From IMG/VR virus record IMGVR_UViG_3300043777_000092, positions 1-59,008 of that record: DNA of 59,008 nt; one strand, 5' to 3'. Position numbers and translations under genes: made by a program. Under the pieces are notes generated by a model. The model did no database searches. It was not told the origin of the DNA and saw only the letters and a program-made list of their open reading frames with translations. Source of the DNA: a virus. Shown here piece by piece: positions 4,543-40,904 of the stretch (position 1 is the stretch's first letter; every line of letters starts with the position of its first letter).

Positions 4543-4718
4543 CGCTTGTGGGGCTCCACGCCGCTCCCGTCGTCCCAGCCGTCAAGTTGGTCGCCGGATT
4601 CGTACTGCCCCTCGGCCTCGTCGAAGCGCGTTCCCACTCGGATGAACGCACCGATGACGATGGCAAGCACTACTGATCCCGCAAGCGAGATCACGCCCCA
4701 CATCAGTAGGTGCTTCAC
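4539..4718 (-). CDS. 59-residue membrane protein, GTG start
   Basis: The product starts at a GTG (VKHLLMWGVISLAG) overlapping the preceding stop as GTGA, behind a GGGGGTGAA site. It has one strong membrane helix (about residues 6-28) and then a hydrophilic acidic tail (DEAEGQYESGDQLDGWDDG). It belongs to the chain of five overlapping minigenes downstream of the promoter near 5 kb. Function is unknown. Confidence 0.65.
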   Translation of the reverse strand: MKHLLMWGVISLAGSVVLAIVIGAFIRVGTRFDEAEGQYESGDQLDGWDDGSGVEPHKR

Positions 4719-8993: not shown

Positions 8994-11900
8994 CTATTGC
9001 ACAACGGGAGCTCCCATTGGCAGCGTACCAGCCTGGGGTTGCTGCTGGCCCTGCTCCGGCCCAAGCCTTCTCTCGATAAGCCGCGAAATCATTTCCCCGC
9101 GCGCGAAGTTGTCCACATCTCGGATGGCTTCCTGCACCTCGCTGATTTTGTCCTGATCGTTCAGGGCTTGATAGTCCGGGCTTTTGAACATTTCGTCAAG
9201 CACTCCGCGCAGCACGTTTCCGCGCATCCCGAGGTATTCGTTCTGCTCTTGGCGGCTCATAGGAATCTTGGTGTTCTGGACAGTCAAGAAGCGTCCGGTG
9301 AAGCCTGGATTGCGAAGGCCGAGGTCGTGCAGACGCGCGAGTTCCGAGTCGATGTTACTTTCGGGAACGTCTTCGGGAATCGGCGCTGGCAGGAAAGCCT
9401 CGCCTCCTGTTCCGCCGCGGCGAATACTCGGACGCCCGAGCGCGTCTAGCCTCGGCGGTACGTCGCGACTGAATATCGGCAGGCCCGACTTAATGCGCTC
9501 AGCGAATCCCTGCGGCTCACGAATCTCTGGGTCCAAAGCTTCCGCCCATGTGCGGTCAAAGCCCGAGAACGGAATCATGCCGCTGGCAATCTCGGTGAGG
9601 AACTGCTGGCCGTATCGCTTCGGGTCCGATACCGCTTGGTCGAGGTTCTGGATACCACGGAAAAATGTCTGGTCGGTGATGGCGTTGCCGAGTCCCGCAG
9701 CCACTTCCTGAATCTTGTCAGAATTGGGTTGCTGGCCGCCATCCTTGAACGAATCGTACCATCCACCCACAGCCGCAATCATGAGTGCCACCGGTCCCCA
9801 TCCGGCAGTGTACCGCACCCAATGATTACCGATCTTGAGACTGTACGGCTGTTTCCCAGAACGGAAGAAGGCATCGCGGTCCTGCGCAGACTTCGGCGCA
9901 CCAGCGGTGATGTTCCCGTCGGCAGCCCACGCGGCGATTGCTGCCATGATGAGTGAACCGACAAGGGCCTGTGCCAGCACGTTTGAGGCTTCGGGACCCT
10001 CTCGGACTTCTTTCCGACCGAGGCGCGCCACGCCTGCCGGAGAGTACCGGAAGGCATTCTTGGCAATGTTCCAACCGATCGTAGCGAACGGGACCACAAA
10101 GCGCATGGGCGCAAGGCCCCCGACAAGGGGAACGTCCTCTGGAATCTTGAGGAAGTTCTCGCGGAAACTCAATAGGCTGCGCAGTGTCCTGTCCGGTTGC
10201 TCCACTAGGGACAGCGTTCGCGCTTCATCCCACGCCTGATTGATCATCCCGGGGAGCGGGTCGTTCACGAGTTCCGTTGCGCGTTCCCCAATGGCATCAC
10301 CTTTCAGTCCTTCCTTGATTGCCGTGCGCATCGCTAGGCCTGCGAGCGCAGACTTGAAGTGCATGGTCTTGAACATCGCCGTCGCACCGGCCAGTAAGCG
10401 CGTGGGCCAGTTCATCGCCAAACCGCCGGGCAGCTCGTACCGGAATGGCATGTCCAGTTCGGTCGCATCTTGTAGGTCAAAACCATTCGCCACGATGAAC
10501 GAACCGGCGCGGACGCCTGCCGGGATCGACTTCAGGTAGGCAAGCGTCTGCGCCAGCGCATCTCTCGCAAAGAACTCTCGCGGTCGGCCCTGCATCCTGG
10601 CGATGGCCGGGTCTAGTGCGCCCCTCACGAACCGCTCGGGAACGGCCAACGCAGCCATGGCCGCATCTCCCAAGAGCTTTCGCTGAATAGTCCGCGGAGA
10701 CGATAGAATGTTGTTAACCCAATACGCTACAACCTTTTGCGGCGTGGTGAACTTAGCTGTGTCGCGCAGGAACCGCGCGAGCGCAACCTTGTCGTCCTCG
10801 GGGATCTGTAATAGCTTTTCACGCTGCTTCTCAGTCAGCCCCCGACCGCCAAGCGCGTCGAGCACCCGCTCGTAGTTCCCTTTGTTCTGAGAACGGAACG
10901 CTTCCGAAACCATGCGCTGTATGCGCAGCGCGCGCCCCGACTCCGCCTTGGCTCCCGACACTGCCGCCTGGATGGCAACATACTCGTTTTCAAGGCGTTG
11001 CAACTCCAAAAGATTCTCGGTACTGTTTGCCTCTGCTGCTCGGTGGGCAGCCTCGCGTACCTGCTCCCCCTTGTCGAGCATGATGCCGATAGCCACCTGC
11101 ATCTCAGCCTCATTGAGGGCAGTGCCCTTCTTCAGTTTGGCGAGCTTCTCCGGGTCAAGGCCCACTTCGCCCATGCGTTGTTTCAATTGCGCGTCCGAGA
11201 GGCGCCCACGACGTTGCGCCTGGATGCGCGCGGTGTGGGTCTTCGCCACATTCCTGATCAGGTCCAGTACCTCGTCCGAGGTATTCAGCTTGTCCAAGCG
11301 GATATTGATGGCCTTTTCGCCGGGTTCGGCACCGCGCCGTGGTTCTTCCGGTTCCATGGGCAAGCCCTCTTCCGGCCGGCGCGGGGGCACCCCCGCACCC
11401 CCGCCACCTGCCGAAACGGCTGCGTTCCGCGCCCGCATACGCCTGATTGCCTGCGAGATACGGTTGTAGATGTTCTGCAGGCCGAGAAAGCTCTGTGTGA
11501 GGTCGTCCGGCGACTCCTGCGGTTCGTCTTGGCCGTCGTCCCCATCATCCTGATTCTGGTCGATGGCGTTCTTGAAGCCCAACTCCGTGTTGAGCTTATC
11601 GAGTTCGCCGTGCGCCTTGTCAAGTTCCTTCTGTTTGTCGAATGGCTTCTGAAGTTGCTCTCGGCGGTCCTCGAGTTCCTGGGTCAGCCTCGGAATGCGC
11701 TCGTGAAAGTCTTGCTCGGCGTTGACGATTTTCCGCCCAATCGTTTCAATGCTTTGGATGGTTCCTGCTGGGCTTGCCTCGATGTCGCCTTTCTCGTTCG
11801 GCTCACCCTGGCCCATTTTGAAGTCCCAAGACCGCGCTCCTCGTAGGTAACCGGTTCGTCCGGTTGTTTCCGGCGTCCCAGAGTAAATCTGGAATCCAGC

Positions 11901-14900
11901 ATATTCCCCGAGGCGCATCCCCTTATCGTATGTGGACTGCAGTGCGGAGTTTAGTGCGGCACCCGCTTCCTTGCGATCGGAGTACACCTTCTTCCCAACC
12001 GTCATCTGAAACTTCTCAGGCCGCGCGTCCCAGGTCGTTCGGTCGGCGCGCGTGGCGTCGAGTAGCTTCCTCGTAGTGTCGATGCGCTCCGGCAGTTGGG
12101 CAATCTTCGCGCGGTTGTCGAATTGCTGGTCGCGGTAGGCCGAGTGAACCATTTCCAACCGATGCAGCGTTGATTCAAGTTCGATCTTTCGGAATAGACG
12201 CTGGTCGCCGGAGGCGGCCGCCTTCATCTCGGCATAGTTCATCGAGGTCTTGGACAGGTCGCCGATGTCCCCGATGTCCGTTTCCCCCTTGAGCAAACTC
12301 TTGATGAACTCCGCTTTGCGGGTCAGAACATCCCACAAGTAGACGTCATAGCTGCGCTTCGTGACGTGGTTGCGGACGACCACTTCTTTGTTCTCGTTGC
12401 CCCACCGAATGCCACGACCGATCACCTGCTCCACTTGGTCAGGTCGGTACGGCGGCGCAAGGATGTGGATTGCACCGAGTTTCCGTTGTACGTTCACGCC
12501 CACCCCGAGGGTGTCGCTGTGCCCGATTACCACCGCGATGTCGCCCTTGTTCACCTGGGCGAACAGCTTTTGCTTCTTCGCAGCGGTCTTGTAGTCCTGC
12601 ATGAACGCGATTTCGTTTTTCGGGATGCCGAGGCCCATCAACTTCTTGCGCAGATCCTCGTAGGAATCGAAGCCGCCTTCGCCTTCGCGGAAGTCCATTC
12701 CCACAAGCTGCGTGGTTTTGCGGTCCCGGCTGTCGTGGTAGAGGTTGGCTATATCCTGCGCGGCTTGGTTGAGTTTGCTGTCGGGGTCGTCTTCAGCACT
12801 CGCGTCCACCATGCGCATGTCGAGCGCGGCCTTCCGGCCATCGCCCGTAATGACGAGCATGTTGTCTTCGCCCTTGCCGGGCTTCTTCCCACGAACTAAG
12901 GCTGCGCGAGAAACCAGTGATTCAATGAAGTTCAGGAGTGCGGGACTCGGTTCCGTCTCCCGTGCTTGCATCTTCCCGCCCACCATGCCCGGCCGGGACA
13001 GTTCGATTCCCTTGTCGTCGGCAAACTTCACATCGGCTGTGCGCCGAAACATCTGCGCGAGCTGCGCCAGATTGTCGAACTTCGAGAAGCGTGTAATCAT
13101 GCGCAGCTTTGATGGGTCTTCCGGTGAGCCCTCCGCTTTAGTTTCGGACTGGCCGAACGTGGCTGCCCATGCGTCGAAGTTCTGCATCCCGAGCGACCGC
13201 AAGTTGTCCTCGTCCAAGAACTTCATCATGATCCATGCTTCGGCAATGGTGTTCGTAACAGGAGTTCCGGTCGCAAACACCACCCCGTTGCCGTTGTTGA
13301 TGCGAGTCACGTACTGCGCCTTGATGTAAGAATCTAGCGACCGCTGCGACTTCGTTTGGGGGATGCCCCGGACGCGTCCCATCTTCGTCGGGAATGGCAG
13401 GCTCTTCAGCCGGTGCGCCTCGTCCACGATCAGGCCGTCCACGCCCGTTTCGTTGAACGGAATAACGTCGTCTTTCTTCTCTTGCGCTTGATAACGCTCG
13501 AGCTGCGCCTCAAAGTTGGCGATTTGGGTTTCCACCACTTTGACCGTTTCTCGATCGCCGTTATCCTTAGCTTCCTCATACTTGTCGCGGGCTTCGTCAA
13601 GCATCGCTTGGGTTGTCTCTGTTGCGATTGCTTGGCCGGGCGGCATCTTGCCGAATTGGCTGTCACCGATGATTACCGCATCCCAGTCGCCCGTAACGAT
13701 GCGGTTCAAAAACTCCTTGCGGTTCATCGTGTCGAAGGAATCTTCATCCGCAATGAGATAGTTCGCGCCGGGGTATAGCCGCATCAGGTCACCGGAGTTC
13801 TGCGGGACAAGATGCGTCGGGAATACAATCAGTGGCTTTTTCTTTAGTCCCAGCCGGCGCCATTCCGCAGCAACCGCGCCCATGATGTAGGTCTTGCCAA
13901 GGCCAACTTCATGCGCGAGAAGCGTGTTCGTGGAACCAGATACGGCGCGCCACACCGCATTCTTCTGGTACGGACGAAGCTGAATCTCCGGATTCATCCC
14001 CGGGAATGTCAGGTGTGAGCCGTCCGGCTGCCAATCCACATTGGCGTTCAGCTTCTCATTGAAGATATGGCTTACTTCATCGCCGTGCGGGGAATCCTCA
14101 AACACCCACCGCTTCAGTTCGGCGTGCAGGTCGTTCAGCTTTTGCTCTGCCGCTGCGGTTTCCTTCGGGTTGACGACACGCTTGTTATCCGGCAGCGGAT
14201 CGTAGATGGTCGGAGCCTTGAGGTTTAGCCCTTGCTGCAAAAGCCATTCCGCCGAGGCACGCGCGGTCCCCCATCGGGTTCGATTCAGTACCGGATCAAC
14301 CCCATACGGCACCGTCAAGTCATACGTTGCCCCGATGTCGTCGTGATAGAGCTTCACGTCGCGCACCGATTGCAGCCCAAGAATGTGCCCAACGAAGTCC
14401 TTCATCACATGATCGGGAATCCATGGCGAGCCGAGTTTCATAAAAATCTTGCTCGGGGATACCGTCTCAGGAATTACCGCCTGTAGGGCTTCGACGTTCG
14501 GGCGGAACTTGTCATCTTCCTGGGCGGCAGCCTCGGCCGCCGCAAGTTTCTTCCGCACGTTCCCCGACAAATAGCGGTCTGCCGTCTCCCAGTGTCCAGA
14601 CGGGTCCTCGAACACCAAGCCTTGCGCCTTGAGGTCGGCTTGCAGTTCCGCTGCGGGCTTGCCTGTCAACTCCGCCATCCGATCAAAGTCAAGGCGCCCT
14701 TTCTCCCCGAGGGACACCATCATCGCGTCTTTGGCGTTGTCCGCTGCTGTAACCGTGGGAGTTGGATTGACGACGCGCTGGCGGAAGATGGCAGCCTTGT
14801 TCGCGGTCTTAGTGTCCTTGTCGTAGTCCTCGAGCGAAAGCAGGAGCGGCAGGTCCGGGTCCGCGTGCATCGCCCGTTCATTTTTGGGCGAATGGATGAT

Positions 14901-17900
14901 GCCGTTCTTCTGGCGGAACTTGTCGTAGGAGTTGTTCAGCCGTCGGCGCAAGTCCGCGAGTTCCTTGGTCGAGCGGTCCTTCGCTTCGGCTTGCAGGAGT
15001 TCGCGCGCCACGTCGCGCACGCCGAGCATTTCCTTGAGCGTCTGAATCTGCTTCTTCGGAAAGTCTGGTTCGTGCTGGATCGCATCCCCGATACGCCGAT
15101 AAACCTTGCCATTCTTGACGGTCAGACCATAGGGCTTAACTTCCTTGTAATCGGGGATGGCGTCCGCACTCGCTTCCGTGGTCAATCCGTCGGGCGCTTG
15201 ACGTGGAACGAACGCGCCCTCTGGCAACTTTGCTACGGCTCGCGTAAGGGCCTCTTTCAGATCCTCGTCGGGACGCGCAATCAATGCAGGCTCTCCCGCG
15301 CGCCGCATGGTGCCGGCCAATTCCATGTTCCCGAGCATCATCTCGGGGTGCTTGGCAAAATATTCGTTGATTGGGATTTGATGCCCTTCGCCGCTCGTAA
15401 TCTCCTGCCGATCTTGGAACGGTTCCCCTGCGTACTTCTCGCCGGGTTCACGCTTCCTGAAAAACAGGATGTCGGTCGTAACTTCCGTTCCCGCGTTTCC
15501 CTTGAACGCATTGTTGGGGAGTCGAATCGCGCCGATAAGGTCCGCGCGGTTGGCAAACAGTTCCCGCTGCTTCTTCTCCTGGGAATCGAGCGTGTGCGCG
15601 GAAGTGATGAGCGCAGCCACGCCGCCCGGGCGCAGTTTGTCCAGCGTCTTCAGGATGAAATAGTTGTGGATGGACAGCTTGTGCTTGTTGTAGCCCGGAT
15701 CGTTGACGATGATTTTCCCGAACGGAACGTTACCCACCGCGATGTCGTAGGTGTCGTTTGGAACGCGGAAATCTCCGAAGCTCTGGATGCGCACATCGGC
15801 GGACTGATAGAGCTGCTTCAGAATCCGACCGCTTACGGGGTCAAGTTCAACCGCACTACGGCGAGTCGCATCTGCGAGATCTCCCGGTTCAAGCCCGAGA
15901 AAATGTCCGATTCCAGCCGAAGGCTCCAGCATCGCGCCCTCGCGGAAGCCGAGGTGCCGTAGTGCATCCCAGATCGCGCCAACCACCGGCGCGCTGGTGT
16001 AGTGAGCGTTTACCGTTGAGGCACGAGCACGCTTGTATTCGTCGTCGGACAGGAGTCCTCGGAGTTCTTCATATTCGTCACTCCAATTCTTGCCGCCCTT
16101 GGTGTCGGAATTGAAAAGCTGGTTGGAAGCGATGCCGCCCCAGCCTGTGTATTTTACGAGGGTTTGCTGCTCTTCGGGAGTTGCGAGACGGCCTTCAGAC
16201 TCTAACTGCTTGAGGGTTCGGATGGCAGAGATGTTTGCGCGGTACTTGGTGCGCTCTCCGCCTGATCCGAGGTGGTCGCGTTCCGTGATGCGGTAGTCGT
16301 GTCCGGCTCGGCTTCCGGTGATGTGCTGTGCGGGCTGCCTGGTTCTGGCGGCAGGAACAGATACCTCTCCCTCACCGCCTCCCACGCGCTCTGGTGGTCC
16401 GCTCCGTGATTGTTGATCGCGTCCAGCAAGTCGTTCTGCGTCTGCTCCGCCGCTTCCACCGCTCTCTGGTGCAGTTCCCCGTTCTTCTCCAGTTCCGCGT
16501 GCATCTTCGGGAGGAATTTCTTCCAATGGGCTTTCGCTTGCGCCACCCACGGACTGCTGTTCAATTCGCTCACCGGGTTCGGTTGGCTGCTCATCGGCAG
16601 GTACCTCTTCTTCTGTCGGGAGTGTACCACTCTCGCGCTGAAATGAATCAGAAAGTTTTTTCTGTACTTTCTGTTGAAGTTCATCCCATGGCTTTCCTGC
16701 AATGCTCGATGAGAATCCCAAGCCGATAAGACGAGCTTGACGTTCCGATGCAGGCATTTTGTTCCAGCGGTCAATAGATGGGCTAGTTTCCGAGGTTCTG
16801 AATCCTCTTGATACGAAAGGACTTTCCTCACCAGTTTTAAGCTGCTCTGTTTTTTCGCCCACACTTTTTATCTCCGCAAGTGTCTCATCCTCTTGTGGTT
16901 GCGGTTCCTGCTCAGGACTTATTTCCTCACCAAGTCCAAATTTGGACTCCGGCTCAGTTGGCAGTTCCCCGGGCCGCCCGGGTTGTTCCAATTCCGCCCG
17001 CTTCTCTTCTCGGATGGTCAGCGTGTCCCCGGGACCGTGCTCTGCCATCCCGCGCTCAAGGTTCGAGCGGTCCATGGCAACCGCTTCCTCGTCGGTGAGC
17101 GGGCGCCCGGCCTGCTCTTCGAGGTCTGCCTTCAGTTCGGCAGGGAGCGCAGCCTCTTCCCCGGTTGGCGTTCCCCGGCTCGTGGACGGCGGCTGGCGCA
17201 TGACTTCGCGCTCGGGTTCCATCGGTAATCCTGGTTCTTCTACAGGAGTTACGGGTTCGGCGGGGGCCGTGGACTCCCGTATCTCCTGCGCCGCGTTCTC
17301 GAGCGCCACCGCTGTCTTTTCCTCTGGCGGGGCCTCGGGAGGCGCTACCTTGCGCGCCTTGGACTTCCGGGGCTTCTCTGGCGGGGCTTCTTCCTTTTCT
17401 GGTGCCGCAGGTGCTTCCGGCTCGGGTTCTGGCTCTGGCGAGGCTGCGGACGCTTCCGCGGGCGGTTTCTCGGTCGTCTCGGGCAGCTTGGTGGTCGCTT
17501 CGGCCTGCCGACGAGAAAACTCATCACGGGCCCGCATGAACTGCTTCGTGATGTTCACGCCCTGGGTGATGCCCTCGTAGATGTTACGGACGCCCTCTGC
17601 GGTAAAGACCGCTGTGGGAATCGCCTGCCCAGCAAGAAGGGCCACTTGGTCCCAATTCTCGTGCGCGATGGCTTCGCGCACCTCTGGGTAGGTCTGCGCG
17701 AGTTGCACCGCCATGGGAACGGTGAAGCCCGTGCCGAGGATTACCTTGCCCGCGGCCGAGGTCGCGAACGTCGCAGGCAGGGCTTCCATGCCCCCCGCAA
17801 GGGCCAGATTCTCGGGCGTTGTCAGTTCCCCAACACCCTTGAGCAAGCCGCGTTCGAGGTTCGCCTGCACTCCGGTAGCGTCTGAGGGGATGGCAGCATC

Positions 17901-18446
17901 CAACGCGAGGTGCGGGGTCTGGACCATCGGCGCCGCCGTCTTCATAGCGTCCATGATCGTGTCCGGCGTGGGCTTGTTCCGCATCTGCGCGACTTGCTTG
18001 GCCCCTTCGAGCACGCTTTCCTCGGAGGCTTTGCCGATGCGGCCAAGCGCGCCCATGGCATCCTCGCGGGATTGCTCCTGCTCCTTCTCCGGTTCCCCGA
18101 TTCCCTTGTCCGTCGTTTCCTTGTACCGCTCGGATTCCAACTTCTCCTCCACCGGCAACGGGGGAATCGGCTGCCCGAACTGGCCGCGCACAGCATGGGG
18201 TTGCAACGATGAGGGAGGCAACTCCAGCGGCAATTCGCCCAGCCGACTCGCTTGGTCGGAAAGGGAAGGAAGTGGGGTCTTGAGGACGCGGGCGGCTTCG
18301 GTAAGGTCTTCTTTGGGCGCTGCTGGTGGTTTGCCTAGCTTGGAAATTTCAGACAGAACCGGATCTTCGGGTTCAGCAACGGCAACACCGCCGCCACCCA
18401 ACTTACCAATTTCGTCGAGAACCGGATCGCCATTGCCGTTTGCCAT
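8994..18446 (-). CDS. Giant polyvalent protein: N6-adenine methylase plus SNF2-type helicase, probably ejected with DNA
   Basis: This 3150-residue protein has an unstructured Pro/Glu-rich N-terminus (to about 680); a methylase-like region (about 740-1000) with KYTGWGG and the NVPFG motif near 907 in place of NPPY; a superfamily 2 helicase with Walker A HEVGLGKT near 1515, DEAH near 1673 and motif VI QVIGRGIRW near 2010; a Gly/Pro linker near 2340; and a C-terminal helical region with two hydrophobic stretches (about 2830-2890). This matches the polyvalent or DarB-like proteins described by Iyer, Aravind and colleagues, which are packaged and injected to protect or remodel incoming DNA. The C-terminus resembles their LPD38-type domain. 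It follows the ejection genes. Confidence 0.85.
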   Translation of the reverse strand: MANGNGDPVLDEIGKLGGGGVAVAEPEDPVLSEISKLGKPPAAPKEDLTEAARVLKTPLPSLSDQASRLGELPLELPPSSLQPHAVRGQFGQPIPPLPVEEKLESERYKETTDKGIGEPEKEQEQSREDAMGALGRIGKASEESVLEGAKQVAQMRNKPTPDTIMDAMKTAAPMVQTPHLALDAAIPSDATGVQANLERGLLKGVGELTTPENLALAGGMEALPATFATSAAGKVILGTGFTVPMAVQLAQTYPEVREAIAHENWDQVALLAGQAIPTAVFTAEGVRNIYEGITQGVNITKQFMRARDEFSRRQAEATTKLPETTEKPPAEASAASPEPEPEPEAPAAPEKEEAPPEKPRKSKARKVAPPEAPPEEKTAVALENAAQEIRESTAPAEPVTPVEEPGLPMEPEREVMRQPPSTSRGTPTGEEAALPAELKADLEEQAGRPLTDEEAVAMDRSNLERGMAEHGPGDTLTIREEKRAELEQPGRPGELPTEPESKFGLGEEISPEQEPQPQEDETLAEIKSVGEKTEQLKTGEESPFVSRGFRTSETSPSIDRWNKMPASERQARLIGLGFSSSIAGKPWDELQQKVQKKLSDSFQRESGTLPTEEEVPADEQPTEPGERIEQQSVGGASESPLEEIPPEDARGTGEERGTAPESGGSGGADAERLAGRDQQSRSGPPERVGGGEGEVSVPAARTRQPAQHITGSRAGHDYRITERDHLGSGGERTKYRANISAIRTLKQLESEGRLATPEEQQTLVKYTGWGGIASNQLFNSDTKGGKNWSDEYEELRGLLSDDEYKRARASTVNAHYTSAPVVGAIWDALRHLGFREGAMLEPSAGIGHFLGLEPGDLADATRRSAVELDPVSGRILKQLYQSADVRIQSFGDFRVPNDTYDIAVGNVPFGKIIVNDPGYNKHKLSIHNYFILKTLDKLRPGGVAALITSAHTLDSQEKKQRELFANRADLIGAIRLPNNAFKGNAGTEVTTDILFFRKREPGEKYAGEPFQDRQEITSGEGHQIPINEYFAKHPEMMLGNMELAGTMRRAGEPALIARPDEDLKEALTRAVAKLPEGAFVPRQAPDGLTTEASADAIPDYKEVKPYGLTVKNGKVYRRIGDAIQHEPDFPKKQIQTLKEMLGVRDVARELLQAEAKDRSTKELADLRRRLNNSYDKFRQKNGIIHSPKNERAMHADPDLPLLLSLEDYDKDTKTANKAAIFRQRVVNPTPTVTAADNAKDAMMVSLGEKGRLDFDRMAELTGKPAAELQADLKAQGLVFEDPSGHWETADRYLSGNVRKKLAAAEAAAQEDDKFRPNVEALQAVIPETVSPSKIFMKLGSPWIPDHVMKDFVGHILGLQSVRDVKLYHDDIGATYDLTVPYGVDPVLNRTRWGTARASAEWLLQQGLNLKAPTIYDPLPDNKRVVNPKETAAAEQKLNDLHAELKRWVFEDSPHGDEVSHIFNEKLNANVDWQPDGSHLTFPGMNPEIQLRPYQKNAVWRAVSGSTNTLLAHEVGLGKTYIMGAVAAEWRRLGLKKKPLIVFPTHLVPQNSGDLMRLYPGANYLIADEDSFDTMNRKEFLNRIVTGDWDAVIIGDSQFGKMPPGQAIATETTQAMLDEARDKYEEAKDNGDRETVKVVETQIANFEAQLERYQAQEKKDDVIPFNETGVDGLIVDEAHRLKSLPFPTKMGRVRGIPQTKSQRSLDSYIKAQYVTRINNGNGVVFATGTPVTNTIAEAWIMMKFLDEDNLRSLGMQNFDAWAATFGQSETKAEGSPEDPSKLRMITRFSKFDNLAQLAQMFRRTADVKFADDKGIELSRPGMVGGKMQARETEPSPALLNFIESLVSRAALVRGKKPGKGEDNMLVITGDGRKAALDMRMVDASAEDDPDSKLNQAAQDIANLYHDSRDRKTTQLVGMDFREGEGGFDSYEDLRKKLMGLGIPKNEIAFMQDYKTAAKKQKLFAQVNKGDIAVVIGHSDTLGVGVNVQRKLGAIHILAPPYRPDQVEQVIGRGIRWGNENKEVVVRNHVTKRSYDVYLWDVLTRKAEFIKSLLKGETDIGDIGDLSKTSMNYAEMKAAASGDQRLFRKIELESTLHRLEMVHSAYRDQQFDNRAKIAQLPERIDTTRKLLDATRADRTTWDARPEKFQMTVGKKVYSDRKEAGAALNSALQSTYDKGMRLGEYAGFQIYSGTPETTGRTGYLRGARSWDFKMGQGEPNEKGDIEASPAGTIQSIETIGRKIVNAEQDFHERIPRLTQELEDRREQLQKPFDKQKELDKAHGELDKLNTELGFKNAIDQNQDDGDDGQDEPQESPDDLTQSFLGLQNIYNRISQAIRRMRARNAAVSAGGGGAGVPPRRPEEGLPMEPEEPRRGAEPGEKAINIRLDKLNTSDEVLDLIRNVAKTHTARIQAQRRGRLSDAQLKQRMGEVGLDPEKLAKLKKGTALNEAEMQVAIGIMLDKGEQVREAAHRAAEANSTENLLELQRLENEYVAIQAAVSGAKAESGRALRIQRMVSEAFRSQNKGNYERVLDALGGRGLTEKQREKLLQIPEDDKVALARFLRDTAKFTTPQKVVAYWVNNILSSPRTIQRKLLGDAAMAALAVPERFVRGALDPAIARMQGRPREFFARDALAQTLAYLKSIPAGVRAGSFIVANGFDLQDATELDMPFRYELPGGLAMNWPTRLLAGATAMFKTMHFKSALAGLAMRTAIKEGLKGDAIGERATELVNDPLPGMINQAWDEARTLSLVEQPDRTLRSLLSFRENFLKIPEDVPLVGGLAPMRFVVPFATIGWNIAKNAFRYSPAGVARLGRKEVREGPEASNVLAQALVGSLIMAAIAAWAADGNITAGAPKSAQDRDAFFRSGKQPYSLKIGNHWVRYTAGWGPVALMIAAVGGWYDSFKDGGQQPNSDKIQEVAAGLGNAITDQTFFRGIQNLDQAVSDPKRYGQQFLTEIASGMIPFSGFDRTWAEALDPEIREPQGFAERIKSGLPIFSRDVPPRLDALGRPSIRRGGTGGEAFLPAPIPEDVPESNIDSELARLHDLGLRNPGFTGRFLTVQNTKIPMSRQEQNEYLGMRGNVLRGVLDEMFKSPDYQALNDQDKISEVQEAIRDVDNFARGEMISRLIERRLGPEQGQQQPQAGTLPMGAPVVQ
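16933..16948. repeat. Dispersed 16-bp palindrome, copy 3 (in a coding region)
   Basis: A perfect AGTCCAAATTTGGACT lies in the disordered N-terminal part of the giant polyvalent gene, read as Glu-Ser-Lys-Phe-Gly-Leu. This frame differs from that of copies 2 and 5. Confidence 0.95.
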
Positions 18447-32655: not shown

Positions 32656-33870
32656 TCAGGCGTAAGCCGATACGCCGTAAAGCCTTGCATGGCGCTTCTC
32701 AAAGCGCGTAATCCATGCCCCCTCAGTGAGATACTCGTCCCTGTACAAATCGGCGCCGTCCTTGATCACATCAATCAAGAGCTGCGTGTCGCGATTCTCG
32801 CCGTTACCGACAAGAGGCGCAAACTCGATTGAATCGAGGTCCAGAGCGTATGCTTCACCGCCCCAGCCCGCGGCCGCGACCGTGGGAGCGTTCTGCAGGT
32901 TCAGGTCGCGGGTGATCATGAAATCGCCGTGGCTCGTGACATAGCGGCTCACCTTGACGCCGTAGATGTCGTCGCCGGGGGCGAGGCGCAGCTTGTTGTC
33001 CGCCCACCAATCGAGAGCGGAAATGACGACGGGCGCGGCCACGAGGAGCTTTTCGGCACCCTCGTAGTATTGCCCGAACGCCTGCTGCGTGAAGGTGAGG
33101 AATGCGCCCTCGGTCAGCGTGGTGTTGCCGTTGTATACGTTCGTCACGATGCGGTTTTTGATGCCCATCGTGGTGCGAATCGTTCCCGGCAGCGCCAGGT
33201 TTTCCGAAGGATGCGACCAGAGTCCCGCCGATTCCATGTCTCGGCGGTGCTCCTCGAGCATCTTGCGCCGCTGGTAGAGGCGGTCGTTCGAGGGGCCGAA
33301 GAGGGCTTGCGCCACCTCCGACTTCGTGACCGACACCGGACGGCGGAAGATCTGCGTGTAGGAAATGAGCACGCTCTTGGCGGTCGTGCGCACCGTGCCG
33401 TAGGCCGCGCCTTCAGGAAAGGCGGGAGACAGGATGCGAATGTCGGCCGTCGCGCCGATTGTGTTTTGGCCGGCGCCGCCGATGCCACGGGTGAGGGTCA
33501 GCGTCGAGCCGTTGATGGCCGTGACCTGGGCCACTTCTTCAACCGTCGAGGAAGTGACTGCGTTCGGGAAGGCAATCAAGTCGTTGACGGCAAAGATGGT
33601 CGGATCGACAACGGAAATGCCCGTGGCAACCGAGCTGTAAGAGGTGGTCGCGTTCGAGACTTGGCCGAATACCGCGAGGTAGTCGTCCTCAATCCACTCG
33701 ACGCGGGCGGAGTTGGTGGGCTTTTTGCGATTCCCAATTTTCGTGATGAGCGTCAAAATCGGGGTCAAGCTCGGATTCAACAGTACGTCATCTTCCCCGA
33801 TAAACTGCCGTTTCTGGACCGTTTCGGTGTACGCCTGGTCGATGGACCGGGCCACTGTGATTGCTGCCAT
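32656..33870 (-). CDS. Major capsid protein, SU10/DUF5309 type
   Basis: The 404-residue protein has the marks of the SU10-type capsid family: an early TPILTLITKIGNRKKPTNSA segment, a strand-rich insertion (about 75-150), RTTAKSVLISYTQIFRRPVS (about 160-180), a long helix YQRRKMLEEHRRDMESAGLW (about 197-217) and an end with RDEYLTEGAWITRFEKRHAR. It should form the HK97-fold shell. It follows the acidic scaffold gene by 21 bases, the usual order. Length fits the family. Confidence 0.88.
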   Translation of the reverse strand: MAAITVARSIDQAYTETVQKRQFIGEDDVLLNPSLTPILTLITKIGNRKKPTNSARVEWIEDDYLAVFGQVSNATTSYSSVATGISVVDPTIFAVNDLIAFPNAVTSSTVEEVAQVTAINGSTLTLTRGIGGAGQNTIGATADIRILSPAFPEGAAYGTVRTTAKSVLISYTQIFRRPVSVTKSEVAQALFGPSNDRLYQRRKMLEEHRRDMESAGLWSHPSENLALPGTIRTTMGIKNRIVTNVYNGNTTLTEGAFLTFTQQAFGQYYEGAEKLLVAAPVVISALDWWADNKLRLAPGDDIYGVKVSRYVTSHGDFMITRDLNLQNAPTVAAAGWGGEAYALDLDSIEFAPLVGNGENRDTQLLIDVIKDGADLYRDEYLTEGAWITRFEKRHARLYGVSAYA

Positions 33871-33891: not shown

Positions 33892-35118
33892 CTACTGCTT
33901 GGAGCGTCCCACGTCCCTGAACAGCCGTGCCGCACGGCTTGAGCCGTTGGCTACGATCTGATCAATGAGTCTTCCTCGCGGGGCCCCTGCAGCTCCTCGA
34001 CTCGAACTCCCCGGTGGCGTTCTGCCGGCGGCAACCTTCAGCGAGCGCGTCTTTTCCGCTTCGCGCCCGCGACGTGATGCCTCTGCCAGCATTTTGGGAT
34101 CAACCCGCTCATTGCGAGCGAGCTTAAAGGCCATTTTCAGCTTGGCCACCCGGTTCTTGTATGGGTCTTTCGAGAAGACCGCATCCTTCAGTTCCGGGCT
34201 TGCCAATGCTCGGTTGATTGCACCTGTGTCCACCAGCTTGTCGAAGCCCGTGTACAGTTTGTCCGACAAGATTTCCTCGACTGCCGCTTCCTTCTCGGCT
34301 AGGTCTTGGCTCTTGGAGAAAAACGGGTATGCGGTTTCGACGGCTTTCCCGACGTTCGGCAGAATCCCGCTCGCAATTTCCATGCCCTTGAGCGTCATCA
34401 CCGTATCCATAGCCTGCGCCATCTCAAGCAGGTCTTCTGGCCTGCGATTGGCCATGAACGCGGCACCCTTTTCCTTGCCCCAGAAGAAATTCGCCATGGC
34501 TCCCATCATCGGGAGAATCGCGTCTTTCAGGACAATCGGGTTGATGTTCGTCTTGGAGTAGTTGCGGGCAGACTCTAGCTGCGCCGTGATTACTTCCTCT
34601 GGTGTCTTTGGCGCCGGGGCTTCCTTGGCCTCCGGTGCCTCTTCGGTGCCCTCTTCCTCTTCTTCCTCAGGTTCCTCTCTGGATTGCAGCTCGGAAATCT
34701 TCCGGCCGCGCTCCATGAGTTCCCGCAGAAGCGCCCTGTCCCCTGGATCGTTGGGATCCAGTTGCTTATTGAATTGCTTCGAGTAGTGCTCGGCTGCCTT
34801 GGCGTAGGCCGATTCCGCGAAGTCGGTTTCGAGGTCTGAGACGTCAAATTCCTCTTCACCAGATTCTTCCTCGCCCTGCTCTTCCTCGCTGGATTCCTCG
34901 GTGGGCTCGCCCTCTTCGGTCGGCTCCTCCGTGGTGTCCTCTACCCCAGATTCCGGCTCTTCCTCGACTTCGGTCCCACGGTCTGCCACTGAGGTATCCT
35001 CTGTGACCGGGGCCTCTGTCTCGGTGACGCCAAGATCGGCGCCAAGCAACGAGTTGATGGCCTCATCGCCCGATGCGGTTTCTATTGGATTCGCTGCTGG
35101 TGCTGTTGGAAACGGCAT
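33892..35118 (-). CDS. Acidic scaffolding-type protein
   Basis: The 408-residue protein has a long Glu/Ser/Thr-rich acidic N-terminus (about residues 30-95, for example EEEQGEEESGEEEFDVSDLE) and a helical remainder (KQLDPNDPGDRALLRELMER; KLKMAFKLARNERVDPKMLA), ending in a basic, glycine-rich tail. Acidic, helical proteins directly upstream of capsid genes are typically scaffolds that guide procapsid assembly and then leave. A 382-nt structured non-coding stretch precedes it. Confidence 0.7.
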   Translation of the reverse strand: MPFPTAPAANPIETASGDEAINSLLGADLGVTETEAPVTEDTSVADRGTEVEEEPESGVEDTTEEPTEEGEPTEESSEEEQGEEESGEEEFDVSDLETDFAESAYAKAAEHYSKQFNKQLDPNDPGDRALLRELMERGRKISELQSREEPEEEEEEGTEEAPEAKEAPAPKTPEEVITAQLESARNYSKTNINPIVLKDAILPMMGAMANFFWGKEKGAAFMANRRPEDLLEMAQAMDTVMTLKGMEIASGILPNVGKAVETAYPFFSKSQDLAEKEAAVEEILSDKLYTGFDKLVDTGAINRALASPELKDAVFSKDPYKNRVAKLKMAFKLARNERVDPKMLAEASRRGREAEKTRSLKVAAGRTPPGSSSRGAAGAPRGRLIDQIVANGSSRAARLFRDVGRSKQ

Positions 35119-35700: not shown

Positions 35701-35940
35701 CTACTGATAGCAGGTACTCGCGTACAGGTCTTGCTGCTGCACGTTCTGGATCGAAAGAAACTGGCTGCCGGTGAGCCCGATGTCCGCGGCCAGGGCTATA
35801 ACCGCTGCGGCTGCGGTGGCCGCATTGACCAGCGCGAAAGCGATCGCGCTCACAAGGGTGGGAGGGTTCGTCGTTCCCTGTGCGTTCGGCGTCACGATCT
35901 GGTACGTGATCTTGTAAAAGTTGCCGGCGATTGTGGCCAT
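35701..35940 (-). CDS. Small paralogue A upstream of the scaffold gene
   Basis: The 79-residue product begins MATIAGNFYKITYQIVTPNA and has an Ala-rich helix (FALVNAATAAAAVIALAADI) and a GSQFLSIQNVQQQ end. AGGAGGGGGC precedes the ATG. It is similar in layout to the next gene. It lies 16 bases after the 3' end of the tRNA gene. Confidence 0.65.
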   Translation of the reverse strand: MATIAGNFYKITYQIVTPNAQGTTNPPTLVSAIAFALVNAATAAAAVIALAADIGLTGSQFLSIQNVQQQDLYASTCYQ

Positions 35941-35956: not shown

Positions 35957-36034
35957 TGGTTGCGGGGGTCCGATTTGAACGGACGACCTCGAGCTCATGA
36001 AGCTCGCGAGCTAACCGGGCTGCTCCACCCCGCG
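35957..36034 (-). tRNA. tRNA with CAU anticodon, initiator (fMet) type
   Basis: The 78-nt gene folds perfectly: acceptor CGCGGGG/CCCCGCA, D stem GAGC/GCTC, anticodon stem CGAGC/GCTCG with loop TTCATGA, T arm GTCCG-TTCAAAT-CGGAC, and an encoded ACCA end. The C1-A72 mismatch and the A11-U24 pair are the hallmarks of bacterial initiator tRNA. It lacks the usual three consecutive G-C pairs at the base of the anticodon stem (here A-U, G-C, C-G at 29-31/39-41). It sits between the deoxyhypusine synthase-like gene and small structural genes in the late operon. Confidence 0.92.
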
Positions 36035-36057: not shown

Positions 36058-37143
36058 TCATTTGCCAAGCACATACGCGAAAATCAGCGGCGCGACGATA
36101 GCCGCGTCCGACTCGATGACGAAGCGCGGCGTTTCGGGCTGGAGTTTCGCCCAAGTAATTTTCTCGTTCGGGACCGCACCGGAGTAGGAGCCATAGCTTG
36201 TGGTGCTGTCCGAGATCTGAACGAAGTAGGACCAATAGGGGACCTTATCGTCCATTCCCATGTCGATCTTAAGCAAGGGAACAGCGCAAATGGGAAAATC
36301 CCCGGCAATTCCCCCACCAATTTGAAAGAACCCAACACCTGCACCTTTGGCCTCTTTCTTGTACCATTTGCAGAGTTCCAGCATGTAGGCGATGCCGCCC
36401 TTGACGCACTCCGGCCCGTGGATTTTCTCTTTCAAGATCATGGACGCGAACATGTTCCCGAGCGTGGAATCCTCCCACCCAGGGACAAAAATCGGCAGCT
36501 CTTTCTCTGCGGCGGCGAGCATCCAAGAATGTTTAGGATCAATCTCGTAATGATCTTCAAGGCTCCCGCTACGCAGAGCACGATACAGATACTCATGAGG
36601 GAAATAAGAAAGTCCGCCAGCATCGGCTTCCTCCCAATACTCTGCCACCACGTCTTCAATCAGCTTCATCGCCGCTTTTTCAGGGATTGCTGTGTCTGTG
36701 ACCCGAGGCAACTCGTTCTCGAGTAGCAGCTCCTCATCGTCTGGCGTAAGGTCGCGATAGCCCGGAATGCGTAGATACTTGGAATGGGCCACCAAGTTGA
36801 AAACGTCTTCTTCGAGGTTCGCGCCCGTGCAGCAGATTGCATGGACCTTCCCTTTGCGGATCATCTCCGCAAGCGTGATTCCCAGTTCGCCCGTGCTCAT
36901 CGCGCCGGCCATAGCCAGGAACATCTTGCCGCCCTTGTCGATCAGGGCGCAGTAGGCTTCGGCGGCTTCGTGGAGCGTGGCGGCGTTGAAATGCTTGAAC
37001 GTGTCGGTGATGAACTGACCCACGGGACCGAGGCCCTTGTGCGTCTCAAGGTCCAACGGGAGGGTGTCGCCGTGGCCGGGGAGAAGCGTTTCCCGGGTCA
37101 GTCCCTCTGGCGCGTTCTTGCCGAATTGGGTCTTGGTGGGCAT
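36058..37143 (-). CDS. Deoxyhypusine synthase-like enzyme
   Basis: The 361-residue protein matches deoxyhypusine synthase along its length (human enzyme 369 residues). It has FLAMAGAMSTGELGITLAEM and CCTGANLEEDVFNL (about 75-115), FVPGWEDSTLGNMF near 220, the NAD-site-like GVGFFQIGGGIAGDFPICAV near 275, and GSYSGAVPNEKITWAKL, where Lys333 corresponds to the catalytic lysine in the WGK motif. The eukaryotic enzyme moves the aminobutyl group of spermidine to eIF5A; bacterial homologues act in polyamine chemistry such as homospermidine formation. It starts directly after the previous stop (TAGATG). A phage copy is unexpected. Confidence 0.85.
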   Translation of the reverse strand: MPTKTQFGKNAPEGLTRETLLPGHGDTLPLDLETHKGLGPVGQFITDTFKHFNAATLHEAAEAYCALIDKGGKMFLAMAGAMSTGELGITLAEMIRKGKVHAICCTGANLEEDVFNLVAHSKYLRIPGYRDLTPDDEELLLENELPRVTDTAIPEKAAMKLIEDVVAEYWEEADAGGLSYFPHEYLYRALRSGSLEDHYEIDPKHSWMLAAAEKELPIFVPGWEDSTLGNMFASMILKEKIHGPECVKGGIAYMLELCKWYKKEAKGAGVGFFQIGGGIAGDFPICAVPLLKIDMGMDDKVPYWSYFVQISDSTTSYGSYSGAVPNEKITWAKLQPETPRFVIESDAAIVAPLIFAYVLGK

Positions 37144-37625: not shown

Positions 37626-38246
37626 TTAAGCGCATTCGAGGCATTGGTTTCTCCCCCACGCTAGAGCGATCCGGTACTGACCGATTTCAAAAATCTCCGG
37701 CGCTTGGATTTCGTGCCCGCCTATTCTAAACCATCTGCAAAAATCTTCCACATCGAGTGACCACTGGTGATCTCCCCCCGAAATATCTCCGCCCAAGTCT
37801 CCATCAATCGGATGCGAGATTAGCACTGTCTTCGCGTGCGGGAGCCACTTTTTCACGAGGCTTACCGGATCGTGCATGTGCTCAAGAATCTCGCACAGGA
37901 TCAGCAGGTCAACCTGCGTGGGTTCAACGTCCTCAATCTCCGCTTGGCAGTAGAGCGCAAGGTATTTCCCCCACCGCTCGTTGGCCTTCTGAATGGCGAG
38001 AGGATGGCAATCGAATCCGCCTACACTGCAGGCCCAAGCAAGCTGCCCGGAAATGTCGCCGGTGCCGCAGCCAAGTTCCAGCACCGTGCGTTCACTGCGA
38101 CCGAGCGACGCCAGCGCGTCCTGGGCGCACTTCACGCTGCGCTTGATGCGGTCGGCCATGAGGGGATGCTCGGTGTAGATGCGCACAGGGTCAAGAGCGT
38201 GGTGGGCAACGCCTTCCTTTGCGTTCCTGTGCTTGAGGGCGATCAA
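37626..38246 (-). CDS. Class I SAM-dependent methyltransferase
   Basis: The 206-residue protein has motif I VLELGCGTGDISGQLAW (about residues 52-68), an acidic turn at FDCHPLAIQKANERWG and the motif IV-like QVDLLILCEILEHMHDP (about 110-127). These are typical of small-molecule or protein methyltransferases of the Methyltransf_11/23 kind. The TTG at 38246 overlaps the HNH stop as TTGA; an ATG at 38336 would overlap the HNH gene by 94 bases. The substrate is unknown. Confidence 0.75.
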   Translation of the reverse strand: MIALKHRNAKEGVAHHALDPVRIYTEHPLMADRIKRSVKCAQDALASLGRSERTVLELGCGTGDISGQLAWACSVGGFDCHPLAIQKANERWGKYLALYCQAEIEDVEPTQVDLLILCEILEHMHDPVSLVKKWLPHAKTVLISHPIDGDLGGDISGGDHQWSLDVEDFCRWFRIGGHEIQAPEIFEIGQYRIALAWGRNQCLECA

Positions 38247-38788
38247 CCGGCACGCTCGCAGAGAAACGGGATACCGTTCAGCTTTCTGGTTTTGTGGGGG
38301 CAGATGCCGCCGTTCATTCGTTTGCCCCAGTTGCACTGCATGCAGAGAACCTGGAAACCAGGTGGGTATCCATGACGTTTAAGCCAGAAGTAAATCTTCG
38401 ACGCTCCGATTTCCTTCCGATGTTTGTTCCCACCATTTTCGATGTGATCCAATGTCAGGAAAAGTCTTTCTATTTCTCCGCAGCACGCGCAGACATAGCC
38501 ACCGTAGGCCAGAAAGGCTTCGTCTTTCACCTTCCGATAGCGGACCATCGTAAGGGCATTGTAATGCGCTCTGTTTTCGTGCTTCCACTTGGCAACTCGC
38601 TCACGGTTCTTCTGATGCCATCGCCTCGTTCGATCAGATTGTTCGTGCCTGTGAGTCCGAACCCAATTCGTAGAAGCTGCGCGAGCGCATGGCTTGCAGT
38701 AGTGCGACAGCCCGTCTTTCATAGACACATTGGAGTGAAATTCTGAGAGCGGGAACTCCTGCTTACATTTGGTGCATTTCTTTGTCAC
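38243..38788 (-). CDS. HNH-type endonuclease
   Basis: The 181-residue protein begins KKCTKCKQEFPLSEFHSN with a second cysteine pair (HYCKPCARA), a zinc-finger start frequent in phage HNH proteins. A basic helix follows and then VCACCGEIERLFLTLDHIENG and FQVLCMQCNWGKRMNGG, the HNH core. It overlaps the radical SAM stop by four bases and the methyltransferase start by four, so it has been inserted into a coupled operon without visible damage. Confidence 0.85.
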   Translation of the reverse strand: MTKKCTKCKQEFPLSEFHSNVSMKDGLSHYCKPCARAASTNWVRTHRHEQSDRTRRWHQKNRERVAKWKHENRAHYNALTMVRYRKVKDEAFLAYGGYVCACCGEIERLFLTLDHIENGGNKHRKEIGASKIYFWLKRHGYPPGFQVLCMQCNWGKRMNGGICPHKTRKLNGIPFLCERAG

Positions 38789-39612
38789 ATCAACTCCGGG
38801 AGTGCCTCGTTATTTATGATGAACCGCTCCACGCCCCTGTTGAAGGAACATTGTAAGCATCTTTGGCACAGTTTGGGGACTATTTTTTCGGCAATCTCCC
38901 GGTGTTTTGCACTCAGCCAAATCGACTTAAACGACTGTTGGTTACAATTTCCAAAAACCAAATCCCTCCTATCGCAGCAAGCGCAGACACTTCCATCGGC
39001 CGAAATTACCGCGTTCGTGAAGGCCGAGTAGCAGGCGTCAAATTCCCGCTGGTCGAACACGTCCCGGTACCGCTTGCCCGTCAGGTGGACCACCACATTG
39101 TACGGAGGCGAAATCTCCTTAATCTCCTGCTGAATTTCGAGCCAGTGTCGCGTAAGACGTACCGGGGTTTCCTCCGAGAGCGGCCGGAATTGAATGTAAT
39201 CCACGCCAGCGGTAGCAGCAAAATCAAGCACGCGGCGAATACTTTCCCCCGAAGAGTTCGCATCAGCGCAAATGTAGGCAAGGCCCACCTCCGGCGATCC
39301 GTTCGTGCGGCTGTGGCACAATCCCTTGATGTCTGCCAACACAGTTCCAAATTCTCCTTCCCGCGTTCCGTGCATTTCCATGTGTTCTTTTTCATTCGAG
39401 GCATCAAGGCTAACCCTGATGTGGTCCGCGAGAAGAAGAGAAGAGAGCCACCTACGGATAAAGCCGCCATGCGTGACAAGCCACGTCCTAAAACCCATAT
39501 TTGCCGCTGCCCGCAGGATCAAACCAAACTGCGGATGCAGCGTAGGCTCGCCTCCGCCACTTAGGTTAATGGTCTTCGTGTCCATTTCCTTCAGGTCATG
39601 GAGCACTTCCAA
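38785..39612 (-). CDS. Radical SAM/SPASM protein, C-terminal body
   Basis: The 275-residue frame, from a TTG at 39612, holds most of a radical SAM enzyme: TINLSGGGEPTLHPQF (the GGE motif that contacts SAM), IRVSLDASNEKEHMEMHG, and a SPASM-like C-terminal cysteine set (VCACCDRRDLVFGNCNQ; KLCQRCLQCSFNRG). The upstream coding character continues to 39687, and the CxxxC motif lies in the same frame beyond a TAA at 39690-39688. As read, translation from the proper start would stop inside the cluster motif. The stop overlaps the HNH start by four bases. Confidence 0.7.
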   Translation of the reverse strand: MEVLHDLKEMDTKTINLSGGGEPTLHPQFGLILRAAANMGFRTWLVTHGGFIRRWLSSLLLADHIRVSLDASNEKEHMEMHGTREGEFGTVLADIKGLCHSRTNGSPEVGLAYICADANSSGESIRRVLDFAATAGVDYIQFRPLSEETPVRLTRHWLEIQQEIKEISPPYNVVVHLTGKRYRDVFDQREFDACYSAFTNAVISADGSVCACCDRRDLVFGNCNQQSFKSIWLSAKHREIAEKIVPKLCQRCLQCSFNRGVERFIINNEALPELM

Positions 39613-39687
39613 GGCGACGTTGTATGGAAGTGTGTGCGATTTTTCAGCAATAGTCGCGCGACGAAAATCAAGCGGTTCGCACCAAAG

Positions 39688-39828
39688 TTAAGGGCATGCG
39701 TGCGAGCAAAGATTTGTCAGGTCAATGCTGGCCCTTATGGGACCGACCTGTTCACCGGCCAATGCCGAATCTATCCGATCAAAAAAGCGCAGGACGCGTA
39801 AATCCGAAAATCTTTCGCTCGTACTCAT
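39688..39828 (-). pseudogene. N-terminal fragment of the radical SAM gene, ended by TAA in the cysteine motif
   Basis: The ATG at 39828 overlaps the glycosyltransferase stop (ATGA) and starts MSTSERFSDLRVLRFFDRID, then reaches IDLTNLCSHACP followed by TAA and then LWCEPLDFRR in the same frame. Removing the six bases TAACTT would give CSHACPWCEP, the normal CxxxCxxC iron-sulfur motif. A six-base insertion has therefore probably inactivated the gene, unless the stop is read through. The total span, 38785-39828, is 348 codons. Confidence 0.65.
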
Positions 39829-40904
39829 GCCTGGGCGCACCCCCTTTCCGGCTGCTTCGCCACGGTATTCACGCGAACCGCGAGCAAGAGTTCCGCGAGT
39901 CTTCGCATAAGACTATGGTTTTTGTGGACCTCTTCACAGCCTGCTTGAGCTATTCGTGCTCGCTCCTGATCTCGGTCATCACTTACCCACTCACGAAGCA
40001 ACTGCGCGACATAGGGAATGTTCGTCGGGCTGTAGTAGACGAGATGGACGCCCGATTTCAAAGGTTCCATGTTGCGCTCGGCGCCGCGGTTCTCGGGGAG
40101 CATTGGGGTTAAGAGAAAAGTCCCGCACGCCATCGTTTCGTAAATCTTGCTCACAAGAAGCTGCGAGAGCGCCGGAAGGTTAAAGAAGACCTTGATCTGC
40201 CGGGTGTTCGACACCAGCAGCCGAATCGAGTCCTCCAAGTGGTAGCCGTGCAGGTCCGACACCGAGCACATCCCGCAGCGGATCGGCGGGTGATTGTGAT
40301 TGCTCAAGGACCGCAGGAAGAGCTGGCGCTTTGGGTACATGAGGCCGAGGAAGGCGATGTCGAAGCATTTCGCCTGCTGCACTTCAAATCGCGCGTCCTC
40401 TGCGGAGTTTCCACGCATCGTAACAAGACCATGGGGCTTGAACATCTCCGTATCCACTCCAAACGGCATCCAGTGCGAGCGCCCTTTCACGAACGGTTCC
40501 TGATCGTGAAACTCCGCGTCCTGAATCGCCGGGAAGAACCACTCGTCGCCCACCCACTTCAAGACGTCTAGGTCGATGGTGTAGTCCTCGCGGTTGCACG
40601 ATTCGTGCAGCCAGCACGCTTTCGGAACCGGGACGTGCTTCCAGTCGTACTTGCCGTATACGAGGTCGATCCACGGGGAAATGTGCTCGGGGCCGCTCAC
40701 GATGATGGCGTCACAGGTCTTGAGCGCGTCTACCTTCGGAGCGCCCGCTTTCACCATCTCGATCATGGGCTTCGAGGCTTCGCGGGCGGTGGGAAGCGGG
40801 CCTTCGAGGACAAAGTGCCCCATCCTGCGCAGGGTCTTGATGATCCCCATTCCCATATTCCATCCGCTTGTGGGATCGTTGGAGTGAAACACCGCTATCT
40901 TCAT
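39825..40904 (-). CDS. CgeB-like glycosyltransferase (GT-B type)
   Basis: The 359-residue protein begins MKIAVFHSNDPTSGWNMGMG and has a middle MPFGVDTEMFKPHG segment and a C-terminal KIYETMACGTFLLTPMLPEN, which is the donor-site motif (E-x7-E-like with YExMACG) of the glycosyltransferase-1/CgeB group. CgeB of Bacillus modifies spore surface; here the acceptor is unknown. It starts and ends in ATGA overlaps with its neighbours, so it is part of the coupled cargo operon after the portal gene. Confidence 0.75.
   Translation of the reverse strand: MKIAVFHSNDPTSGWNMGMGIIKTLRRMGHFVLEGPLPTAREASKPMIEMVKAGAPKVDALKTCDAIIVSGPEHISPWIDLVYGKYDWKHVPVPKACWLHESCNREDYTIDLDVLKWVGDEWFFPAIQDAEFHDQEPFVKGRSHWMPFGVDTEMFKPHGLVTMRGNSAEDARFEVQQAKCFDIAFLGLMYPKRQLFLRSLSNHNHPPIRCGMCSVSDLHGYHLEDSIRLLVSNTRQIKVFFNLPALSQLLVSKIYETMACGTFLLTPMLPENRGAERNMEPLKSGVHLVYYSPTNIPYVAQLLREWVSDDRDQERARIAQAGCEEVHKNHSLMRRLAELLLAVRVNTVAKQPERGCAQA

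What the first reader, a model, noticed from the sequence alone, without database searches (positions are those of the whole stretch)
35957..36034. Phage-borne initiator tRNA with altered anticodon stem
C1-A72 and A11-U24 mark an initiator, yet the three G-C pairs that normally tune P-site selection are replaced by A-U, G-C, C-G. The encoded CCA and perfect fold suggest function. It could raise initiation on phage messages or resist host depletion of initiator tRNA.
Basis: partly seen in the sequence, partly recalled or inferred. Interest (0 to 1): 0.75.

Follow-up and report, generated by a model that had tools for sequence, protein, structure and literature searches.

The report
Phage initiator tRNA, unusual anticodon arm
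An uncultivated phage carries a single intact start-codon (initiator) tRNA gene whose decoding arm departs from nearly all bacterial initiators, above all by a G next to the anticodon that its relatives have kept while most of the rest of the molecule changed; phage initiator tRNAs are not new, but I found no description of this variant.

Summary
At 35957-36034 (-) lies one well-folded tRNA with anticodon CAU, a C1xA72 mismatch, G2:C71, C3:G70, A11:U24 and an encoded ACCA. Stem pairs 29-31 are A-U, G-C, C-G, so the middle G30:C40 is kept.

Five phage lineages hold a tRNA or tRNA-like gene at the same place. In all five, 1:72 is unpaired (C.A, C.C, U.C), acceptor pairs 2-6 and G30:C40 are invariant, and G follows the anticodon, while the D, anticodon and T stems changed with pairing kept. 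That indicates selection for an initiator. Changes at 29 and 31 are common in viral initiators (69 of 119) and occur in named phages (Wakanda, Milchi).

Best explanation: a phage-owned initiator, charged and formylated by host enzymes, whose altered arm spares it from host nucleases such as VapC (cut at A38/C39; here residue 39 is G). The initiator role is well supported; nuclease evasion is inferred. Pairing of G37 with a pyrimidine before AUG is suggested in two relatives but not across the wider set, and not clearly in the window.

The parts
35957..36034 (-). tRNA gene, anticodon CAU, 78 nt, initiator type
   Evidence: ARAGORN; Rfam RF00005 54.5 bits; covariation in five lineages
36028..36034 (-). 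5' acceptor strand CGCGGGG, C1 at 36034
   Evidence: read from sequence
35957..35967 (-). 3' acceptor strand CCCCGCA with A72 at 35961, then encoded ACCA 35957-35960
   Evidence: read from sequence; 1:72 unpaired in all five lineages
35990..36006 (-). anticodon arm CGAGC UUCAUGA GCUCG; anticodon C34-U36 at 35999-35997, G37 at 35996
   Evidence: read from sequence; compared with viral and cellular sets
36058..37143 (-). neighbouring gene on the 5' side, deoxyhypusine-synthase-like protein, 361 aa; same order in L003 and L012
   Evidence: Pfam PF01916 E 2.3e-39
35701..35940 (-). 79-aa open frame that starts 16 nt after the tRNA, with a strong Shine-Dalgarno sequence
33892..35118 (-). 408-aa scaffold-like gene (inferred from position), marks the shared locus
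32656..33870 (-). major head protein gene, marks the shared locus
   Evidence: phrog_1328 E 9.8e-23; relatives

Best explanation
The gene makes a working initiator tRNA owned by the phage. Host methionyl-tRNA synthetase charges it through CAU, host transformylase formylates it through the unpaired 1:72 end with G2:C71 and C3:G70, and it starts translation in the P site. Its anticodon arm is altered (G37, U32, A29-U41, C31-G39) and so escapes host enzymes that cut the standard initiator arm, such as VapC, which keeps initiation going late in infection. Shown by sequence comparison: an intact tRNA with initiator determinants that are kept while the stems turn over. Inferred: expression, charging, formylation, use in initiation, and nuclease evasion.
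For: Intact tRNA with encoded CCA. In five lineages 1:72 is mismatched in three different ways, acceptor pairs 2-6 and G30:C40 are invariant, and 13 of the 14 D, anticodon and T pairs are intact in every lineage despite heavy sequence change. C39, one side of the VapC-cut bond (PMC4105405), is replaced here and in 45 of 119 viral initiators, but in none of the cellular matches. Evasion by anticodon-loop change has been proposed for other phage tRNAs (PMC10264068).
Against: No host or host nuclease is known. Three of the five lineages keep C39, and the D and T stems drift as much as the anticodon stem, so the arm changes may be plain drift. L012 has C11-G24 and an 8-nt loop; the L016 copy is degenerate. 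Relatives L271 and L273 showed no tRNA. The cited paper reports that phages of VapC-bearing Shigella generally avoid encoding tRNA-fMet.
Confidence: 0.4

Rival explanations
1. It is a functional initiator kept for dosage, giving more initiator during the late burst. The stem and loop changes are neutral drift under relaxed constraint, with G30:C40 the one stem pair that has to stay.
For: All three arms drift alike while the acceptor and G30:C40 stay; G30:C40 in 109 of 119 viral initiators; lone initiator-like genes occur in unrelated phages such as ct7L0027.
Against: G37 is rare (3 of 119 viral, 18 loci in 84,980 species) yet present in all five lineages of this group, which drift alone does not predict.
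Confidence: 0.33
2. G37 extends start-codon pairing: the loop CAUG pairs with a pyrimidine, C or U, just before AUG, so the phage initiator favours phage messages.
For: In relatives with a 7-nt CAUG loop, homology-supported ATG starts have C or U at -1 in 40 of 54 cases against 0.40 at control ATGs; L012, with an 8-nt loop, has 4 of 15.
Against: No excess across contigs with G37 tRNAs, C 25% against 24% for A37; in the window C is 3 of 24 and C or U 8 of 14. The test was post hoc, starts are crude, genes are shared between the genomes.
Confidence: 0.1
3. It is a poor P-site binder that is still charged and formylated, and so ties up host initiation factors and slows host translation: a decoy or dominant-negative initiator.
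For: The acceptor determinants of formylation are intact while two of three 3GC pairs and A37 are changed.
Against: Most viral initiators share relaxed stems, and G30:C40 is conserved, which a decoy would not need. No direct evidence.
Confidence: 0.07
4. It is a Met elongator or a decaying passenger tRNA without an initiator role.
For: A11:U24 is not kept throughout (C11-G24 in L012); the L016 copy is degenerate; L271 has none.
Against: 1:72 is unpaired in all five lineages, and arm pairing is maintained through many compensated changes.
Confidence: 0.1

Closest known systems
Bacterial initiator tRNA-fMet (type carried by Aeromonas phage AP1; Acidobacteriota initiator in L219)
   Same: CAU, C1xA72, G2:C71, C3:G70, A11:U24, G30:C40, A73 and CCA
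   Different: A29-U41 and C31-G39 instead of G-C pairs; U32 and G37 instead of C32 and A37
tRNA-Met of Streptomyces phage Wakanda and Pseudomonas phage Milchi
   Same: Phage-borne initiator-like tRNA with the same 29-31 triad A-U, G-C, C-G
   Different: A37 and C32; 1:72 is C.U in Wakanda and U-A in Milchi; they lie among other phage tRNAs
Lone tRNA before the capsid gene of Caudoviricetes ct7L0027 (MW202675)
   Same: An initiator-like CAU tRNA shortly before the major capsid gene
   Different: A37, C32.A38, U1-A72, stem UGG/CCA; no relation of the phages was shown
Phage tRNAs with anticodon-loop changes proposed to evade host tRNases (PMC10264068)
   Same: Phage tRNA with substitutions at and near a known nuclease cut site
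   Different: Those are mainly elongators of mycobacteriophages with a known host nuclease set; here the host and nuclease are unknown

Membership tests
Bacterial initiator tRNA (tRNA-fMet) | No Watson-Crick pair at 1:72 | tested here: met
   C1xA72; unpaired in all five lineages
Bacterial initiator tRNA (tRNA-fMet) | G2:C71 and C3:G70, assisting formylation (PMC7949028) | tested here: met
   Present, invariant in five lineages
Bacterial initiator tRNA (tRNA-fMet) | A11:U24 in the D stem | tested here: met
   Present in the window and in L013; G11-C24 or C11-G24 in L003, L016, L012
Bacterial initiator tRNA (tRNA-fMet) | Three G-C pairs G29:C41, G30:C40, G31:C39 | tested here: not met
   Only G30:C40 is met. 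Not strict: Pseudomonadota initiators with U41 and most viral ones fail it too, so I claim a variant that works like an initiator, not a canonical member
Bacterial initiator tRNA (tRNA-fMet) | A37 and C32.A38 of the special loop conformation (PMC4611024) | tested here: not met
   G37, U32, A38
Bacterial initiator tRNA (tRNA-fMet) | Formylated methionine and P-site use | not testable with these tools
   Needs expression, charging and initiation assays
Nuclease-evading phage tRNA (PMC10264068) | Substitution at or next to a known nuclease cut site | tested here: met
   C39 to G39 beside the A38/C39 bond cut by enteric VapC (PMC4105405); G37 nearby
Nuclease-evading phage tRNA (PMC10264068) | Host encodes a nuclease that cuts its own counterpart and spares the phage one | not tested
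   Host not identified; Acidobacteriota only suggested (and the L012 tRNA resemblance)

The most novel reading that the evidence does not exclude
CAUG-loop initiators are a virus-specific class that reads one base beyond the start codon, pairing G37 with a pyrimidine at -1, and so gives phage messages their own start context in the presence of the host A37 initiator.
Probability: 0.1. Interest if true: 0.82.

Novelty: new variant of a known kind. Interest (0 to 1): 0.5.

Why it matters
The three G-C pairs and A37 of the initiator arm are treated as near-universal. Viral initiators show which parts evolution lets go and which it keeps: the unpaired acceptor end and G30:C40 stay, while 29, 31 and, in this lineage, A37 do not. 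If the altered arm spares the tRNA from initiator-cutting toxins, it would be a counter-defence acting at the first step of translation; if G37 reads the -1 base, it would be a way to favour phage messages. Both are simple to test with a single tRNA gene.

Tried and rejected
Extended pairing at -1: not supported in the window (C in 3 of 24) or across G37 contigs; a bias in L014 and L016 is noted as post hoc. Attachment-site or host-fragment reading: the gene lies among late structural genes, and no tRNA with its T arm was among the parsed cellular G37 matches. Elongator reading: disfavoured by the conserved 1:72 mismatch. Rarity of the 29/31 changes: rejected. The Rfam scan of the whole window gave nothing, probably a filter effect, as one search shows. 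A DNA search of seven contigs with the window tRNA gave nothing although one of them holds the diverged tRNA of L003, so that search was too insensitive to use. Literature searches for A37G initiators and for mycoplasma 3GC variants gave no held paper.

Full report
What is there. The window is a 59 kb uncultivated virus record. It holds one tRNA gene, 35957-36034 on the minus strand: CGCGGGG TG GAGC AGCCCGGUUA GCUC G CGAGC UUCAUGA GCUCG AGGUC GUCCG UUCAAAU CGGAC CCCCGCA ACCA. C1xA72, G2:C71, C3:G70, A11:U24, A73 and an encoded CCA are present. The pairs 29:41, 30:40 and 31:39 are A-U, G-C and C-G. Base 37 is G and base 32 is U.

Is it more than chance? Searches with neighbouring proteins brought relatives with the same gene order. 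A tRNA or tRNA-like gene lies upstream of the scaffold-like gene, itself upstream of the head gene, in L003, L012, L013/14/15 and L016; the L016 copy is not called by ARAGORN and was read by eye. Laid out by tRNA position (the layout is mine), 1:72 is C.A, C.A, C.A, C.C and U.C, never a pair. Acceptor pairs 2 to 6 and G30:C40 never change. Of the 14 pairs of the D, anticodon and T stems, 12 change, mostly on both sides, and only one is broken, in one lineage. G follows the anticodon in all five (CAAUG in L012). Third-position identity to the window is 42-61% in the neighbouring genes compared. This is a maintained RNA with fixed acceptor and anticodon identity. L271 and L273, more distant relatives, showed no tRNA, so it is gained or lost. 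Limits: only five lineages; L012 has an 8-nt anticodon loop; L016 lacks the usual T-loop and D-loop sequence and scores no Rfam tRNA match, so it may be decaying.

How unusual is the arm? A scan of viral contigs blind to base 37 and to the stem gave 119 distinct tRNA ends of the type TCATN...CCCGCAACCA. Base 37 was A in 116 and G in 3. The stem was GGG/CCC in 11, AGG/CCU in 39 and something else in 69, with G30:C40 in 109. In cells, 39 matches in Acidobacteriota and 107 in Pseudomonadota (both counted by hand) were all A37 apart from one copy in each of the two seed genomes, which had been picked for G37; bases 39-41 were CCC or CCU throughout. A scan of 84,980 bacterial and archaeal species found 18 loci with G37 and A72; 8 of 11 such genomes examined also carry an A37 copy. 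A viral scan for G37 gave 49 contigs, with 43 distinct tRNAs; these mostly lack the C32.A38 combination (U32 in 27, C38 in 21). So changes at 29 and 31 are usual for viruses; G37 is rare anywhere and kept in this lineage. Named phages Wakanda and Milchi carry the same stem triad with A37.

How it may work. In E. coli the free initiator arm has A37 in a triple with G29-C41 and a C32.A38 pair (PMC4611024), and the 3GC pairs support P-site use (PMC7949028). The window tRNA lacks these loop and stem features but keeps the acceptor determinants of formylation. I infer charging and formylation by host enzymes and use in initiation. For the altered arm the idea I rank first is evasion of initiator-cutting nucleases: enteric VapC cuts between A38 and C39 (PMC4105405), C39 is replaced here and in 45 of 119 viral tRNAs against none of the cellular matches, and evasion by loop changes has been proposed for other phage tRNAs (PMC10264068). 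Relaxed constraint explains the stem drift nearly as well, because the D and T stems drift too and three of five lineages keep C39.

The -1 idea. Base 37 faces mRNA position -1 (Esposito 2003, known to me by citation only). Across contigs with G37 tRNAs there is no excess of C at -1 (25% against 24%). Within the lineage, homology-supported ATG starts have C or U at -1 in 40 of 54 cases where the loop is a 7-nt CAUG loop, 4 of 15 in L012, and 0.40 at control ATGs. This was found after looking, rests on crude starts and shared genes, and is weak in the window (8 of 14). I keep it as the most novel reading, at 0.1.

Host. Acidobacteriota genomes hold relatives of the neighbouring deoxyhypusine-synthase-like protein at about 60-65% identity, and the L012 tRNA shares its anticodon stem UUGGG/CCCAA with an Acidobacteriota initiator. 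No other phylum was searched with this protein, so the host is a guess.

Verdict. The tRNA is real, initiator-like and under selection. A new variant of a known kind, interest 0.5.

Noticed in passing
window 36058-37143 (-); also L003, L004-L009, L012: Deoxyhypusine-synthase-like protein in phages (Pfam PF01916), closest NCBIfam model homospermidine biosynthesis protein but far below its cut-off; the lysine of the conserved W-x-K motif is kept. [quoted passage not shown]
   Followed up: partly
L012 4346-4423: Initiator-like tRNA with an 8-nt anticodon loop UUCAAUGA at the same locus; its reading of a codon is unclear.
   Followed up: partly
L016 about 4564-4636: tRNA-like element with a 4-nt D loop, a non-standard T loop UGCGACU and the same UUCAUGA loop; not called by ARAGORN or by Rfam tRNA.
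   Followed up: partly
L008 and L009: Viral contigs of 25.7% G+C that carry the same deoxyhypusine-synthase-like family (39% identity), far from the 57% G+C of the window.
   Followed up: no
window 8994-18446 (-): 3150-aa protein matching DarB-like antirestriction (phrog_10089), with helicase and methylase parts.
   Followed up: no
window 37626-40904 (-): Methyltransferase, radical SAM/SPASM and glycosyltransferase genes next to the deoxyhypusine-synthase-like gene.
   Followed up: no
L183-L200 (genome contigs): Rare cellular loci with G37 initiator-like tRNAs; 8 of 11 genomes examined also have an A37 copy, in G008 and G018 a few kb away on the same contig.
   Followed up: partly
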